A program made the translations under genes and the position numbers. A DNA stretch of 64,000 nt from the NCBI GenBank assembly GCA_000381585.1, contig KB906741.1, positions 124,001-188,000 on the forward strand, given 5' to 3'. Below the pieces are notes generated by a model, which saw only the letters and a list, made by a program, of their open reading frames with translations, was not told where the DNA came from and did no database searches. This stretch comes from Acidobacteriaceae bacterium KBS 83 (GTDB taxonomy: Bacteria; Acidobacteriota; Terriglobia; Terriglobales; Acidobacteriaceae). Below, one piece after another: positions 53,904 through 59,532 of this stretch; position 1 is the stretch's first letter, and each line of letters begins with the position of its first letter.

Positions 53904-54839
53904 TCACGATTTCGAGGCCTGCTCGATGGCGCGAATATGCTCCGGACCAGTGCGGCAGCAGCCGCCGATCCAGTCTGCGCCTGCCCTGCGCCATGTCTCT
54001 GCCAGCGCCCCGAAGCTCTGCGGGTCGGAAGCGCCCGCCCAGCTTCGCGTCTCTGCTACCCAGTCCTCCCCGGAGTTGGGATACACCGCGATGCGCTTCG
54101 TGCTGACCGCGCGGATCCTATGAATGAGCGGCAGGATATAACGCGGGGCAGTGCAGTTGATGCCGATGGCGATGATTTGGCGCGGCGTATCGACTAGGCG
54201 CGCGCATTCTTCGATCGGCTCGCCGTGGCCGGTGTGACCGTCGTCGCGACAGGTGAAGCTGATATAGGCCGCCAGATCGGGAAACCGTTCGAGCGATTCA
54301 AGGATCGCTTCCGCCTCCGCAAGCGATGGAATTGTCTCGAAGGCGACGAAGTCCGCAGCAGTCTCGCGCATCGCGAGAATTCTTTCCGCGTGGAAGGCGA
54401 CCAGTTCGGAATGGCTGACGTTGTAGCGTCCATGGAACTCCGCGCCGTTGTGCAGCGCGGCTCCATACGCGCCTAGTGACCCGGCGATCCAGATCGGACG
54501 CGGCTCGCGTCCTGCGGCCAACTCGGCCTGCATGTATTCCCGCCGAGCCTCTTCGCCGAGCGCGACGCTCTGCTGGATCGCAGCGCGCGCCTCATCTCCG
54601 TTGAGGCCGATCTCACGAAAGCCCATCGCCGAAACCTGGTAGCTCGCAGTGAGTAGGCAATCCGCTCCCGCATCCAGATAGCTGCGATGCACCGCAAGCA
54701 CCTTCTCCGGATGCGCGCGCAGTACTTCGCCTGACCAGAGCGGGCTCGCGAGGTCGCAGCCTGCGCGCTCCAGTTCCGTGGCGAGACCGCCATCGATTAC
54801 GCGCAGTCCGGCCAGGTCAAGTTCGTCGAACGGAGTCAT
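53904..54839 (-). CDS. mmuM: Homocysteine S-methyltransferase
   Basis: 311 residues, TIM barrel of the Pfam S-methyl_trans family. The zinc-binding Cys residues lie in IGINCTAP and in WIGGCCRTGPEHI near the C-terminus. The N-terminal VIDGGLATELERAG is typical of MmuM, which methylates homocysteine with S-methylmethionine or SAM. Cytoplasmic, methionine recycling. No riboswitch is recognised in the 150 nt upstream. It is divergent from the tRNA gene. Confidence 0.92.
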   Translation of the reverse strand: MTPFDELDLAGLRVIDGGLATELERAGCDLASPLWSGEVLRAHPEKVLAVHRSYLDAGADCLLTASYQVSAMGFREIGLNGDEARAAIQQSVALGEEARREYMQAELAAGREPRPIWIAGSLGAYGAALHNGAEFHGRYNVSHSELVAFHAERILAMRETAADFVAFETIPSLAEAEAILESLERFPDLAAYISFTCRDDGHTGHGEPIEECARLVDTPRQIIAIGINCTAPRYILPLIHRIRAVSTKRIAVYPNSGEDWVAETRSWAGASDPQSFGALAETWRRAGADWIGGCCRTGPEHIRAIEQASKS

Positions 54840-54989: not shown

Positions 54990-55066
54990 CGGGGAGTGGC
55001 TCAGCCTGGTAGAGCACCTGGTTCGGGACCAGGGGGTCGGAGGTTCGAATCCTCTCTCCCCGACCA
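54990..55066 (+). tRNA. tRNA-Pro (anticodon CGG), CCA encoded
   Basis: 77 nt. The acceptor stem CGGGGAG (54990-54996) pairs with CTCCCCG (55056-55062), followed by discriminator A and encoded CCA. The D-arm contains GCTCAGCCTGGTAGAGC, the anticodon stem CCTGG/CCAGG encloses TTCGGGA, giving anticodon CGG. The T-arm is GGAGG-TTCGAAT-CCTCT. Reads proline codon CCG. Its last 12 nt plus one are repeated at 56628-56639. Confidence 0.97.
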
Positions 55067-55067
55067 T
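55056..55067 (+). repeat. 12-bp direct repeat, copy 1 at tRNA-Pro 3' end (att-like)
   Basis: CTCCCCGACCAT, the 3' end of tRNA-Pro plus the next base. The same 12 bases recur at 56628-56639, 1572 bp away. This is the usual signature of site-specific integration at a tRNA gene. Confidence 0.7.
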
Positions 55068-55392
55068 TCTTTCTCAAGCAATCCCAGCTCTCACCTTGAA
55101 TACCCTGCTCTATTCATGCGCTGGTCCCATAGGCGCCAGCCTGCTCGTGGCGATGGGACTGTAGAGATTTCAGTTATTCGATGCTAGCGGGTTCTGCCTC
55201 GCCTCGCGGGACATCGCGGTTTGCGGGCTGAACAAAGGAAATCAAATTGGGCCTACGTCACTGGGCCCGCGTCCACCGCGAGCCTCGGACCAATTCATTC
55301 CCAACCCAGAAAAGACACCTAACAAGCAAAAACGGTTAGGTACTAGTGGCGTCAGTTGAGCGCCTACATTCTCTGCGGGATCTGTTTTCTAG
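55068..55392. other. 325-bp non-coding start of the tRNA-Pro island
   Basis: No open frame with support. An ACCTAAC/GTTAGGT stem (55317-55323 with 55335-55341) has an 11-nt A-rich loop. The peptidase gene fragment begins at its right edge; the missing N-terminal half of that gene is not found here in any frame. Confidence 0.5.
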
Positions 55393-56255
55393 CGCTCCAC
55401 TGTCGGACCTCTCGTTTGTGGATTTGAGGTGTACACCGATTTCGATGCGTATGGCATGGACGCTCATGGCGTTTACCGCCACGTAACGGGCACTCTTCGG
55501 GGTGGCGATGCGGTGCTAGTCGTCGGGTATTCGGATGTCGACAACTGCTGGATTTGCCGCAACAGTTGGGGTCAGGGTTTCGGCGGGGCAGCCAAGCCCG
55601 AAGGCGTGGGTGCGGGCCTTTTCACAATAGGCTATGGCGAATGCGACATCGATGGCGAGCCGCTTTATGGCGCCCGCGGCGTCATTGCTCCTGCGGATAG
55701 TAGATGGGGTGGCTGGTGGGCGGTGGCGGGTGGAGTTGCTGCCCCGGGCACATCTGTTTTGGCGTTTCCCGCAGTGCGGACAAGCTGGATATCTTCTGCG
55801 TTGGGACCGACCACGGAACGGACAGATCGTGAAACCGCAGTAACGGACGAGTTCGCAGCTGCCACACCACCCTGAACACGCCACGACGGACAAGCTGGAC
55901 ATTTTTGCCGTGGGCACCGACTACCACGTCTACACGGCTGCTTGGGAGGCTGGCTTCACGAGCCGGCATGGCTGGTGGCCAGTCGGCGTTCTCACAGTCG
56001 CACCCAATACATCAGTCTTTGCCGTTTCGCGTTCCCTCGATCACCCTCGATATCTTCGCAATAGGAGAAGACAGCCGGATCTACACTGCCGCATGGGCTC
56101 CCAGTATGACTCGATGGCGCGGTTGGTGGTGCATCCTGGAGGGAATGGCGGCGTCTGGAACGACCGTTTCTGCGGTTGTCCGTAGTGCCGACCATCTCGA
56201 TGTGTTTGTCGTTGGGACGGACTCTCATATTTACACCTCCGCGTGGCAGCCATAA
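55393..56255 (+). pseudogene. Decayed papain-like (C1A) peptidase fused to beta-propeller repeats
   Basis: Only the C-terminal part of a C1A peptidase remains: GPLVCGFEVYTDFDAYG, GGDAVLVVGYSD, WICRNSWGQGFGG and LFTIGYGECDID align with the end of papain. The catalytic His of GGHAV is replaced by Asp and the Cys half is missing. Downstream is a run of propeller-type repeats (DUF346/PLL-like): DIFAVGTDYHVYTAAW, DIFAIGEDSRIYTAAW and DVFVVGTDSHIYTSAW, with GWW in each. The frame shifts at about 55770 (frame 1 to 3), then stops, then continues in frame 2 (55910) and frame 3 (to the stop at 56253). Not functional. Confidence 0.85.
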
Positions 56256-56258
56256 GCA

Positions 56259-56558
56259 ATGGCAAGGAAAGAGAGCATAAACGTTACGGGAAGGGCTGGC
56301 GAGCCGATCGATCTTCCTATTTCCCATGGCCCCCCTACCGGATACGTATGGTCGCTGCAAATGCCTCCGGAAGTCACTCAAATCGAAGATGGCCCGCCCC
56401 CGGCCGTAGCCTCAGAGAAGCGGCTCGGGTCTGCGGTGAGTGGAGCGATGCGCGTGACAGCGCCGTCCGGCCGCTATCGCATTGAGGCGCGTCTGGCTCG
56501 CTCGTGGGAATCGGATAAGCCCGCCCGGATTCTTTCAATCGATTTAGTCGTGGAGTAG
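56259..56558 (+). CDS. Chagasin-like (I42) cysteine-peptidase inhibitor
   Basis: 99 residues, intact, starting 4 nt after the wrecked peptidase gene ends. Three inhibitor loops can be matched: loop 2 GPPTGYVW (residues 24-31; NPTTGY in chagasin), a Gly-containing loop 4 (RLGSAVSG, 55-62), and loop 6 ARSWESDKP (80-88; RPW-type). The beta-rich pattern fits an Ig-like fold. Chagasins block papain-type peptidases, so the neighbour is the natural partner. No signal peptide is seen, though the family is often exported. The call rests on motifs read by eye. Confidence 0.65.
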   Translation: MARKESINVTGRAGEPIDLPISHGPPTGYVWSLQMPPEVTQIEDGPPPAVASEKRLGSAVSGAMRVTAPSGRYRIEARLARSWESDKPARILSIDLVVE

Positions 56559-56627
56559 ATCGCGCGCTCAACGCAATCCTAGTGACTAGGAGGAGTTCTG
56601 GTTGGTGCCCACCCTCTTCATCTCTAG

Positions 56628-56639
56628 CTCCCCGACCAT
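56628..56639 (+). repeat. 12-bp direct repeat, copy 2 (att-like)
   Basis: CTCCCCGACCAT, identical to the tRNA-Pro 3' end at 55056-55067, and preceded by a short related TCTCT. It marks the right edge of the 1.57-kb peptidase/inhibitor island. Confidence 0.7.
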
Positions 56640-56664
56640 CATTCACTCGTTGATGAAGGGTGAA

Positions 56665-57615
56665 TCAATGAGATATGGCCCGCGACTCGAGCTTCTTCTG
56701 CTTCAATAGCGAATCGAATTCAGACCGCGGCATCTTCAATCGCTCCGGATGTTCATCGATCCACTTTGCGAAAGCGTCGTATTTGGTCTGAGTCCATCCT
56801 CCTTCAAATTGGCCGCCGTTCTTGCCATTACGATTCAATTCGAAATTGAATGCGTCTTGCAAATTCGTAAACTCAGCCGAACTGATTGCTTCTTCCGCCA
56901 GAATCGCCGGAATGAAGATCACCCCGTCACTCTTTGCGAGAACCAAATCTCCAGGCAGCACGGTGGCGCGGCCGATGCGGATTGGAGAATCAATTGCCGT
57001 CAACGTCATATCAGCCCACGCCGATGGATCATAACCGCGATAAAACCCATTCAAATTTGGAATGTCACGGTTTTCTTCCTGGTCTCTAATACCCGCATCG
57101 AAAACAAAGCCTGAGCGGGTATGTGCTGCGATGCCGGTGCCCAGGTTGGACCCGATCAACGTCCCTTCCACAATTTTGCCGAACCCGTCAGCTACATACA
57201 CATCGCCTGTTTGCAATTGCGCGATCGGCCAGCTGTTATTGCCGCCCTCGCGGTGCTCGGCTCTCCCCTCAGCAGCGATGGCCTTGGCCATGTCTGGTCG
57301 CAACGGCATATATTGCGCGGTGAGCGCTCTTCCGGCAAAGGGCTTCTCACTATGTAGGGCCTTCCAGTCGCCATCAAATTGGCAATGGTAACCGCGCTCT
57401 TCCAGAAAATCCCACAGATCTTCGATCGAGACGTCCAACGCTCTCGTCAGCAAATCATCCGAAATCTTTGGGCGACCATCTGGGAATCGGTCCCCCTTCC
57501 AGTCCGAGGTGTAGAACTTAATCTGGTCTTTCGTTGTTGCAACTTGGGAATGGCCGGCTTGAACCGTCAGCGCCAATCCGAAGGACAGAAGGACGATGAA
57601 TAGTAATTTCGTCAT
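56665..57615 (-). CDS. Exported RraA-family protein
   Basis: 316 residues with a signal peptide (LLFIVLLSFGLALTVQAG). The core resembles RraA/HMG-aldolase proteins: residues about 45-230, with YMPLRPDM, GDVYVADGFGKIVEGTLIGSNL, and SPIRIGRATVLPGDLVLAKSDGVIFIP. RraA-type proteins are normally cytoplasmic; some are aldolases for 4-hydroxy-4-methyl-2-oxoglutarate. The C-terminal 80 residues are extra and helical. GGAG lies 8 nt before the ATG. It is divergent from poxB. The function of the exported form is unknown. Confidence 0.8.
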   Translation of the reverse strand: MTKLLFIVLLSFGLALTVQAGHSQVATTKDQIKFYTSDWKGDRFPDGRPKISDDLLTRALDVSIEDLWDFLEERGYHCQFDGDWKALHSEKPFAGRALTAQYMPLRPDMAKAIAAEGRAEHREGGNNSWPIAQLQTGDVYVADGFGKIVEGTLIGSNLGTGIAAHTRSGFVFDAGIRDQEENRDIPNLNGFYRGYDPSAWADMTLTAIDSPIRIGRATVLPGDLVLAKSDGVIFIPAILAEEAISSAEFTNLQDAFNFELNRNGKNGGQFEGGWTQTKYDAFAKWIDEHPERLKMPRSEFDSLLKQKKLESRAISH

Positions 57616-57807
57616 TCAGAACACTCCGTTTTTGCGTATTGAGCTGCGAAAAGGCGGCAAGCAGTCCGAGGTACTTTGCAGCGTCGGGCTGCTCGCTCAG
57701 AGCTAGACCTTACACGAAATGCGAATGCCGTCCCTGCGGATGAACCGAAACGGTGAATACTGTGGTGTTCTCTGACGGCGAGACCGGACAGAGAAAAGGT
57801 GAAGCAC

Positions 57808-59532
57808 ATGGCAAAGAAAGTGGCTGAGGTATTCGTCGAGACACTGGTAAACGCAGGTGTGAAACGAGTCTATGGAGTCGTAGGCGACTCTCTGAACGGT
57901 TTAACCGACGTCATCCGGAAGAGCAAACAGATCGAGTGGATGCATGTGAGGCATGAAGAGGCCGCCGCATTCGCCGCGGGCGCGGAAGCTCACCTTACGG
58001 GGGACATTGCGGTATGTGCAGGCAGCTGCGGGCCGGGCAATCTTCACCTCATCAACGGCCTCTTCGACTGCCATCGGAGTCGCGTACCAGTGCTTGCGAT
58101 TGCGGCGCAGATTCCGAGTCATGAGATCGGAAGCGGCTATTTTCAGGAAACGCATCCTGAGCATCTGTTCAAGGATTGCAGCCATTACTGCGAACTCGTG
58201 TCTCAGCCAGAGCAGATGCCGAGAGTCTTGGGAATCGCCATGCGCACTGCTCTCGCCAAACGAGGCGTTGCGGTGGTCGTCATTCCGGGTGATGTGGCGC
58301 TGCGCGAATGTTCCGCGGCGGCGCTTTCACTCGGTATAGAGCACTCGGCGTCAGTCCTGATTCCATCGGAAAATGAACTTCGCCGAGCGGCTGACATTCT
58401 CAACAGCGCACACAAGGTCACTATCCTTGGCGGTGCGGGCTGCGAGGGCGCTCATGCCGAGCTCATTACAGTGGCCGAACGCCTCAAGGCGCCGATCGTC
58501 CATGCGTTGCGTGGCAAGGAATTTATCGAATACGACAATCCTTACGACGTCGGAATGACCGGGTTGCTTGGTTTTTCGTCGGGCTACCACGCCATGATGA
58601 ACTGCGACGCCCTGCTGATGTTGGGAACGGATTTCCCCTATCAGCAGTTCTATCCGAAGAACGCCAAAATTATTCAATTGGATCGGCTCGGGGAACAGAT
58701 TGGCCGCCGTACTCCGGTCGATCTGGGGATGATTGGAAATGTGAAGGACACCCTTGATGCGTTGACTCCGCTTATCCGGAGCAAGACCGACCGCTCCTAT
58801 CTTGATACATGTCTCGCTCACTACAGGAATGCCCGGAAGGGGCTCGACGATCTCGCCGTGGGTGAACCGGGCCGAACCCCGATTCATCCACAATACGTCG
58901 CAAAGGTCCTCGATGAGCTCGCAGCCGAAGACGCGGTCTTCACCTGCGACGTCGGTACTCCTACAGTGTGGTCTGCGCGCTATCTCCATATGAATGGTAA
59001 GCGCAGATTGCTTGGCTCGTTTACTCATGGCTCGATGGCCAATGCTCTGCCGCAGGCCATCGGCATCCAGGCAAGTCATCCCAACCGGCAGGTCATCACT
59101 TTGTCCGGAGATGGCGGGTTGGCAATGTTGCTTGGCGATTTGCTGACGCTCAAGCAACTCAAGCTGCCCGTGAAAATAGTGGTCTTCAACAACAGCTCCC
59201 TCGGCTTCGTTGAACTGGAAATGAAAGCCGCCGGTCTGGTCGATTACGGGACCGATTTGATCAATCCCAATTTTGCGAAGCTCGCCGAGTCAGCGGCTAT
59301 CCTCGGCGTTCGCGTGGAGAAACCGGAAGAGTTGCGTCCCGTCCTGACCGAAGCTCTGGCACACGACGGCCCTGCTTTGATCGATGTGCTTGTGAATCGG
59401 CAGGAGCTATCGATGCCGCCGACGATAAGTCTTGAACAAGCTCTCGGCTTCAGCCTTTACATGATTCGCGCGGTATTGAGCGGACGCGGCGATGAAGTCA
59501 TTGATCTGGCGAGGACCAATCTCCTGCGTTGA
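57808..59532 (+). CDS. poxB: Pyruvate:ubiquinone oxidoreductase (pyruvate oxidase), PoxB
   Basis: 574 residues from ATG 57808, with AAAGGTGA 6 nt upstream; E. coli PoxB has 572. A ThDP- and FAD-dependent peripheral membrane enzyme that oxidises pyruvate to acetate and CO2 and passes electrons to ubiquinone. The N-terminal PYR domain has the catalytic Glu in [15 protein letters not shown]; the FAD domain covers 190-350; the ThDP domain has [18 protein letters not shown]8[12 protein letters not shown]. The C-terminus ([21 protein letters not shown]) matches the membrane-binding alpha-peptide of E. coli PoxB. It is divergent from the RraA-like gene. Confidence 0.95.

What the first reader, a model, noticed from the sequence alone, without database searches (positions are those of the whole stretch)
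55056..56639. A 1.57-kb island bracketed by a duplicated tRNA-Pro 3' end, without an integrase
CTCCCCGACCAT at the 3' end of tRNA-Pro(CGG) recurs exactly at 56628-56639. Between the copies lie only a decayed C1A peptidase/propeller gene, an intact chagasin-like gene and non-coding DNA. A chance 12-bp match at this distance is unlikely, so this looks like an att-bounded insertion that lost its mobility genes, or a passenger of an element acting in trans.
Basis: partly seen in the sequence, partly recalled or inferred. Interest (0 to 1): 0.7.

Follow-up and report, generated by a model that had tools for sequence, protein, structure and literature searches.

The report
Possible decayed island at tRNA-Pro
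A 12-letter copy of a tRNA gene's end lies 1.6 kb downstream of that gene, beside a broken peptidase gene and its intact inhibitor; the tRNA is a genuine landing site for mobile DNA in related bacteria, but this copy is much shorter than the landing scars found there and cannot be told from coincidence.

Summary
The repeat is real: CTCCCCGACCAT at 55056-55067 (3' end of tRNA-Pro CGG) and 56628-56639, the only two copies in the 6.25 Mb genome. One extra copy is what chance predicts (1.3); only its closeness is notable (about 2e-4). The tRNA is a true integration hot spot in Acidobacteriaceae: 11 of 60 relatives have a partial tRNA copy downstream on the same strand and contig, some with a tyrosine integrase behind the tRNA, whose left arm the window's flank TTCTTTCTC resembles. 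Against a right end: partial copies found in relatives align over 33-62 nt (24 copies; shorter ones would escape that search), an island at another tRNA-Pro of this genome has 48 nt, while here 12 nt stop abruptly; no integrase, no empty site; and TTCTTTC also follows a third tRNA-Pro with no repeat behind it. The contents are the wreck of a C1A peptidase-chagasin operon, intact elsewhere in the family away from tRNA-Pro. Possibly an old decayed accretion; right boundary unproven; not mobile now.

The parts
53904..54839 (-). homocysteine S-methyltransferase gene; conserved neighbour 5' of tRNA-Pro in the family
   Evidence: PF02574 E 1.4e-74; next to tRNA-Pro(CGG) in 10 of 11 genome-contig loci
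54990..55066 (+). tRNA-Pro (anticodon CGG), CCA encoded
   Evidence: ARAGORN
55056..55067 (+). repeat copy 1, CTCCCCGACCAT (tRNA 3' end)
55067..55075 (+). TTCTTTCTC flank, resembles the left arm (P') of X-type integrase islands at this tRNA
   Evidence: (P 1.5e-4 against random window 14-mers that begin with T), (Fisher P 3.5e-4, motif chosen after seeing the flanks); but TTCTTTC also follows tRNA-Pro(GGG) on C8
55396..55689 (+). C-terminal part of a C1A (papain-family) peptidase; N-terminal half missing, GGH replaced by GGD
   Evidence: tblastn with the intact 576-aa relative covers its residues 210-295 only; PF00112
55700..56255 (+). frame-broken C-terminal repeat region of the same gene
   Evidence: three 38-nt repeat copies spaced by 110 and 301 nt; no single open frame
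56259..56558 (+). open chagasin-like (I42) peptidase inhibitor gene, 99 aa
   Evidence: PF09394 29.7 bits, cutoff 27.2
56628..56639 (+). repeat copy 2, CTCCCCGACCAT
56665..57615 (-). RraA-like gene, the first gene beyond copy 2; no close relative in the same-genus genome
   Evidence: PF03737; only a weak hit in G001, E 1.4e-4
57799..59532 (+). thiamine-diphosphate enzyme; ortholog elsewhere in the same-genus genome
   Evidence: PF02775/PF00205/PF02776; G001:C417

Best explanation
The segment is an old, immobile accretion at a tRNA gene that this bacterial family uses as an island landing site. At some time a tyrosine-integrase island (type X or a relative) recombined with the 3' part of tRNA-Pro(CGG), restoring the tRNA and leaving its left arm (TTCTTTCTC) behind it (inferred). 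Deletion and recombination then removed the integrase and reached into the C1A peptidase gene of a peptidase-inhibitor operon, whose inhibitor gene is still open (the decay is shown, its order is inferred). The 12-bp copy at 56628 is either a heavily truncated right end or a coincidence; I hold these about equally likely. I see nothing in the segment that could move it now.
For: tRNA-Pro(CGG) is a hot spot in the family: partial tRNA copies downstream on the same strand and contig in 11 of 60 relatives, at 1.5 to 71 kb (lower bound), 24 partial copies of 33-62 nt, integrases behind the tRNA, more than one match in 11 of 18 genomes picked for a pattern search. The flank after the window's tRNA matches relatives' flanks (best 12, 11, 11 of 14; P 1.5e-4); 7 of 10 flanks with the motif have an X-like integrase behind them against 6 of 51 flanks without it. 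Synteny with the same-genus genome ends 6 bases past the tRNA. The C1A-chagasin pair is intact in a relative and broken here.
Against: Only 9 nt of the left arm are recognisable; its deeper conserved parts (TTACGC.GCC, TTCGGTACATTCGGTACAAC) are absent. TTCTTTC, 7 of the 9 nt, also follows tRNA-Pro(GGG) on C8 of this genome, which has no repeat of 11 nt or more in the 20.7 kb behind it and no PF00589 match on its contig, so the flank may be a plain tRNA trailer. By local alignment the flank test is weaker (P 0.01) and its best match is a G012 partial-copy flank, not an X-type one. X is not found in this genome or in G001 at E 1e-10; no fragment of X in 55067-57700 better than E 0.2. The flank after copy 2 does not match relatives' flanks (P 0.52; best local match, to the right end of this genome's C2 island, P 0.09 over 65 flanks).
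Confidence: 0.45

Rival explanations
1. Coincidence: no island boundary here. Copy 2 is the one chance occurrence of this 12-mer expected in a genome of this size and happens to lie 1.57 kb from the tRNA; the segment is ordinary decaying chromosomal DNA next to a rearrangement breakpoint.
For: 1.3 copies expected genome-wide, one non-tRNA copy found; 24 direct repeats of 12 nt or more within 2 kb in the 64-kb window; the 24 partial copies found in relatives are 33 nt or longer (a search that would miss much shorter ones); 48 nt in this genome's C2 island; no gradual decay upstream of copy 2; six C1A loci elsewhere show no tRNA-Pro within the stretch read; TTCTTTC also follows a tRNA-Pro without a repeat.
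Against: Chance of that 12-mer in 1.6 kb on the same strand is 1.7e-4, and it ends exactly with the CCA and one base; in about 474 kb behind this tRNA or a partial copy in 27 other series no 11-44-nt copy was found.
Confidence: 0.4
2. A genuine small att-bounded cassette: a passenger of about 1.57 kb inserted as a unit at the tRNA by an integrase acting in trans, with a short core.
For: Segments of 1.5-3 kb between tRNA repeats, without a detected integrase, exist in relatives: G022 1.5 kb, G005 2.2 and 1.7 kb, G012 3.0 kb, G027 2.5 kb; 13 PF00589 matches elsewhere in the genome, one of them a fragment, could act in trans.
Against: Those segments have repeats of 33 nt or more; five long stretches behind X-type left arms show no 10-44-nt copy (G450 59 kb, G034 45 kb, G601 19 kb, G024 40 kb, and G020 79 kb, which has the arm without X), and in G016 the copy found is the full 45 nt; the peptidase gene starts mid-gene inside the segment; no second copy of the segment in the genome.
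Confidence: 0.15

Closest known systems
Genomic islands integrated by tyrosine recombinases into tRNA 3' ends
   Same: intact tRNA at one end, copy of its 3' end downstream, accessory and decaying genes between
   Different: 12-nt repeat where the partial copies found at this site in relatives have 33-62 nt; no integrase; no empty site found
Additive flexible genomic islands (passages read: PMC10872708, last 20 bp of tRNA-Lys repeated; PMC5217437, cassettes added or lost largely by site-directed recombination)
   Same: the pattern at tRNA-Pro(CGG) in relatives, successive partial tRNA copies with segments between them, is of this kind
   Different: the window has one candidate segment and a much shorter repeat; repeats in relatives mostly reach to the anticodon loop
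Tycheposons (passages of PMC10872708 and PMC11389934 read; original paper not read)
   Same: tRNA-anchored cargo islands with a tyrosine recombinase
   Different: no recombinase in the window; replication or packaging genes not tested
Papain-family (C1A) peptidase with chagasin-family (I42) inhibitor operon
   Same: order peptidase then inhibitor, as in G498 (576 and 105 aa); a chagasin-like frame also lies near the peptidase in 4 of 5 other C1A loci examined
   Different: peptidase broken and lacking its N-terminal half; only the inhibitor is open

Membership tests
tRNA-integrated genomic island | intact tRNA with its 3' end forming one boundary | tested here: met
   synteny with G001 ends 6 bases past the tRNA
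tRNA-integrated genomic island | direct repeat of the tRNA 3' part at the other boundary, of the length usual for the site | tested here: not met
   12 nt here; 33-62 nt in the 24 partial copies found in relatives (much shorter copies would escape that search); an exact-suffix scan of 27 other series found two copies of 45 nt, one of 10 nt and none of 11-44 nt; 48 nt in the C2 island of this genome
tRNA-integrated genomic island | site-specific integrase inside, or a remnant of one | tested here: not met
   no PF00589 match on C9 downstream of the tRNA; no X remnant better than E 0.2
tRNA-integrated genomic island | empty site in a close relative | tested here: inconclusive
   the only same-genus genome has different DNA after the tRNA and at the far side
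tRNA-integrated genomic island | left arm of a known island type behind the tRNA | tested here: inconclusive
   9-nt match, P 1.5e-4, P 0.01 by local alignment; association with integrase X; but TTCTTTC also follows tRNA-Pro(GGG), which has no repeat behind it
C1A papain-family peptidase | complete catalytic domain with Cys and His | tested here: not met
   only residues 210-295 of the intact relative are covered; GGH replaced by GGD; that these are the catalytic positions is recalled
Chagasin family inhibitor I42 | PF09394 over its curated cutoff | tested here: met
   29.7 bits, cutoff 27.2
Additive flexible genomic island | recurring tRNA-3'-end repeats delimiting cassettes | tested here: inconclusive
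   seen in relatives; in the window only one 12-nt copy

The most novel reading that the evidence does not exclude
The 3' half of tRNA-Pro(CGG) in Acidobacteriaceae serves as a standing landing pad for arrays of small, integrase-less cargo cassettes bounded by tRNA repeats and moved in trans by several tyrosine integrases, much as integron cassettes are; the window holds an eroded member that carried a peptidase-inhibitor pair.
Probability: 0.12. Interest if true: 0.6.

Novelty: new member of a known kind. Interest (0 to 1): 0.25.

Why it matters
If the right end were real it would add one decayed example to tRNA-anchored islands and show how short an island scar can become. The wider result, a repeatedly used tRNA-Pro(CGG) site with integrases and short segments without a detected integrase in Acidobacteriaceae, is the better lead: it marks where soil acidobacteria take up accessory genes and allows a test of whether cassettes there move in trans.

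Tried and rejected
An early reading was dropped. In one search the flank TTCTTTCTC after the window's tRNA matched relatives, and I took it for the native chromosomal flank, which would have refuted an island (note). Searches showed that in most relatives with this flank it is followed by an integrase gene, so the inference was reversed. A later result, the similar flank behind tRNA-Pro(GGG) on C8, weakens the new reading in turn; for it I lowered the best explanation from 0.5 to 0.45 and raised coincidence from 0.35 to 0.4.

G001 as an empty site: rejected, because its DNA after the tRNA (a SolA-like oxidase whose ortholog lies at C3:257361 here) and its DNA next to the resumed synteny are both unrelated to the window. 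RraA as native neighbour of tRNA-Pro: of five relatives with a 66-75% identical protein, three (G036, G022, G009) have it far from that tRNA or on another contig; in the other two (G021, G035) no full CGG tRNA was listed. C1A-chagasin as typical island cargo: no tRNA-Pro in six loci of 9-11 kb and no 11-mer copy. Plasmids (chagasin query) and phages (C1A query): no match. Viral contigs: no chagasin relative; one contig with the exact 45-nt tRNA core, which carries the whole tRNA and an integrase. A longer degenerate attR in the 129 kb of C9 behind the tRNA: none seen; the 17-nt match near the contig end looks like a T-arm, probably of another tRNA.

Full report
What is there. ARAGORN finds one tRNA in the window, tRNA-Pro(CGG) at 54990-55066. 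Its last 11 bases plus one T, CTCCCCGACCAT, recur exactly at 56628-56639. The pattern has two hits on the forward strand and none on the reverse in the 6.25 Mb assembly. Between the copies lie a C1A peptidase fragment, frame-broken repeats and an open chagasin-like gene. Copy 2 is followed by an RraA-like gene on the minus strand.

Is it more than chance? A first-order Markov model of 184 kb of contig C9 gives 1.3 copies of the 12-mer per genome on both strands and 1.7e-4 in 1.6 kb on one strand. So the existence of one extra copy is expected; its place is not. The window has 24 maximal direct repeats of at least 12 bases within 2 kb. In 602 kb behind this tRNA or a partial copy in 28 series (27 others and this genome), an exact-suffix scan found 45-nt copies in G016 and G022, a 10-nt copy in L120, and one copy of 11-44 nt, the window's. 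Behind tRNA-Pro(TGG) on C2 of the same genome, a 12-nt repeat of the tRNA body lies 11.9 kb downstream. The match is suggestive but does not carry the case by itself.

The tRNA as a landing site. The block methyltransferase-tRNA-Pro(CGG) is old: it is present in 10 of 11 loci found with the methyltransferase. Behind the tRNA the DNA varies. In one search, 11 of 60 relatives have a partial copy of this tRNA downstream on the same strand and contig: G022 1.5 kb, G027 2.5, G037 and G055 about 6.4, G029 and G030 about 16.5, G009 26, G007 37, G016 43, G031 44, G024 71 kb. The counts are lower bounds, since at most five candidates per genome were scored and the list was cut. The 24 partial copies in the fetched loci align over 33-62 nt and mostly begin at the anticodon loop (TTCGGGACC); the search behind them (E 1e-4) could not have seen 12-nt copies. 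Of 18 genomes picked for a further pattern search, 11 have more than one match at up to 2 mismatches, which can include related proline tRNAs, and 7, this genome among them, have only the tRNA itself.

Integrases at the site. In L120 and L048 the gene right behind the tRNA is a tyrosine integrase, here called X, with its C-terminus towards the tRNA (PF00589 38.3 and 33.1 bits against a cutoff of 27.1). X, part of it or a remnant also follows the tRNA or a partial copy in L116, L133, L152, L154, L160 and L051. Other integrase types stand behind the tRNA in L059, L062 and L114. In 61 distinct flanks, the motif [AT][TC]CTTTCTC is found in 7 of 13 with an X-like gene behind and in 3 of 48 without (Fisher P 3.5e-4, motif chosen after seeing the flanks); the three are this window, G020 and L117.

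The window's left flank. The 14 nt after the window's tRNA match relatives' flanks better than random window 14-mers beginning with T (mean over 33 flanks, P 1.5e-4; best 12 of 14), while the flank after copy 2 does not (P 0.52). By local alignment over 65 flanks the left flank gives P 0.01, its best match being a partial-copy flank in G012 and not an X-type one; the flank after copy 2 gives P 0.09, its best match being the 9-mer TCATTCACT behind the right end of this genome's C2 island. The deeper parts of the X arm are missing, no X fragment better than E 0.2 is found in 55067-57700, and X is not found in this genome or in G001 at E 1e-10. Against the arm reading, tRNA-Pro(GGG) on C8 is followed by TTCTTTCG with no repeat of 11 nt or more in 20.7 kb and no PF00589 match on C8. 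So the left flank may be what remains of an X-type arm, or a plain trailer.

A real island for comparison. In the same genome, tRNA-Pro(TGG) on C2 has a PF00589 gene 1.3 kb behind it and an exact 48-nt repeat from the anticodon loop on, 19.4 kb downstream. This is what a well-kept pair of ends looks like here. The window's copy 2 has nothing recognisable of the tRNA upstream of the acceptor stem.

Empty site. The only same-genus genome among those searched, G001 (its contig matches record JAUTWX010000466, Acidobacteriaceae bacterium BP_1, in length and tRNA position), is collinear up to 6 bases past the tRNA. It then has other genes; its SolA-like oxidase is at C3:257361 in the window's genome. 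Window DNA from 59642 on is collinear with G001 contigs C141 and C517, and the thiamine-diphosphate enzyme lies elsewhere in G001. No clean empty or filled site results. About 4.5 kb between the tRNA and 59642 is a mosaic private to this genome in that comparison.

The contents. An intact two-gene unit exists in G498: a 576-aa C1A peptidase (PF00112 163 bits) followed 50 bp later by a 105-aa chagasin-like protein (PF09394 82 bits). A chagasin-like reading frame also lies near the peptidase in four of five further loci (L146, L147, L148, L150; not L149). In the window only residues 210-295 of the G498 peptidase are covered, starting at 55396, its GGH is GGD, and the part behind is frame-broken. 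The missing N-terminal half was not found in the 184 kb of C9; the rest of the genome was not searched for it. None of the six loci, 9-11 kb each, has a tRNA-Pro. With single-sequence searches, chagasin was found beyond this genome only as weak hits in 1 of 60 relatives (E 0.008) and 1 of 395 other phylum genomes (E 9e-4), and the peptidase piece in 17 of 396 other genomes of the order. The gene pair looks like a scattered accessory operon, not a signature of this site.

Short segments in relatives. Segments of 1.5-3 kb between tRNA copies occur in G022, G005 (two), G012 and G027, without an integrase detectable by tblastn with X or with twelve integrase queries from this genome, several of which were short fragments. 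Of five reading frames from them put to Pfam, one is a metallo-beta-lactamase-fold protein and one joins aspartyl-protease and SnoaL-like domains; three had no match. They may be passengers moved in trans or leftovers of larger islands; the data do not decide.

Weighing. Under an attR reading a 12-nt right end would be much shorter than the copies found, though short copies are hard to find; under chance, a copy this close has a probability of 2e-4 to a few per thousand once other possible repeats are allowed for (my estimate). I put the two about level, with a slight lean to an old island at the site because of the hot spot and the left flank. The passenger-in-trans form is the least supported.

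Literature. Seen: passages of PMC10872708 (additive islands with repeats of the last 20 bp of tRNA-Lys; tycheposons), PMC5217437, PMC11389934 and PMC5900883 (35 prophages in acidobacteria; 12 of 24 places shown, none naming a tRNA site). A search for tRNA-Pro, integration site, genomic island and Acidobacter found no paper in the held library; the other searches were otherwise read as listings, and none listed names this site in its title or shown abstract.

Noticed in passing
L196 918-994 and G000:C2:66860 (this genome, outside the window): A 19.4-kb island at tRNA-Pro(TGG): 48-nt exact repeat from the anticodon loop, PF00589 gene 1.3 kb behind the tRNA; about 30 nt after both repeat copies are also nearly identical.
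   Followed up: partly
L046 tRNA-Pro flank (G001): The flank behind tRNA-Pro(CGG) in G001 (CAATCACTTAG) resembles the left flank of this genome's C2 island (P 2e-4), which may mark another island type there.
   Followed up: no
L048, L120, L133, L152, L154, L160: Tyrosine integrase X directly behind tRNA-Pro(CGG) or a partial copy, with a conserved arm (CTTTCTC ... TTACGC.GC ... TTCGGTACATTCGGTACAAC in most) in Acidobacteriaceae.
   Followed up: partly
L061 9115-10638; L135 7066-10932; L134 7131-10104; L130 5340-7885: Short segments of 1.5-3 kb between tRNA-Pro(CGG) copies without a detected integrase, in tandem in G005.
   Followed up: partly
L145 2845-4943: Intact papain-family peptidase and chagasin-like inhibitor as a two-gene unit in a genome of the same family.
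   Followed up: partly
L151 6203-8524: IMG/VR contig with an integrase gene and a complete tRNA-Pro(CGG), probably a provirus or island at this site.
   Followed up: partly
L047 flank, L139 flank and L151 8525-8600: A shared stretch (GGAGACATGGGT.ACAGAATGTACCGGCTACATGGGT) right behind tRNA-Pro copies in G015 and in a viral contig, possibly an insertion-sequence end.
   Followed up: no
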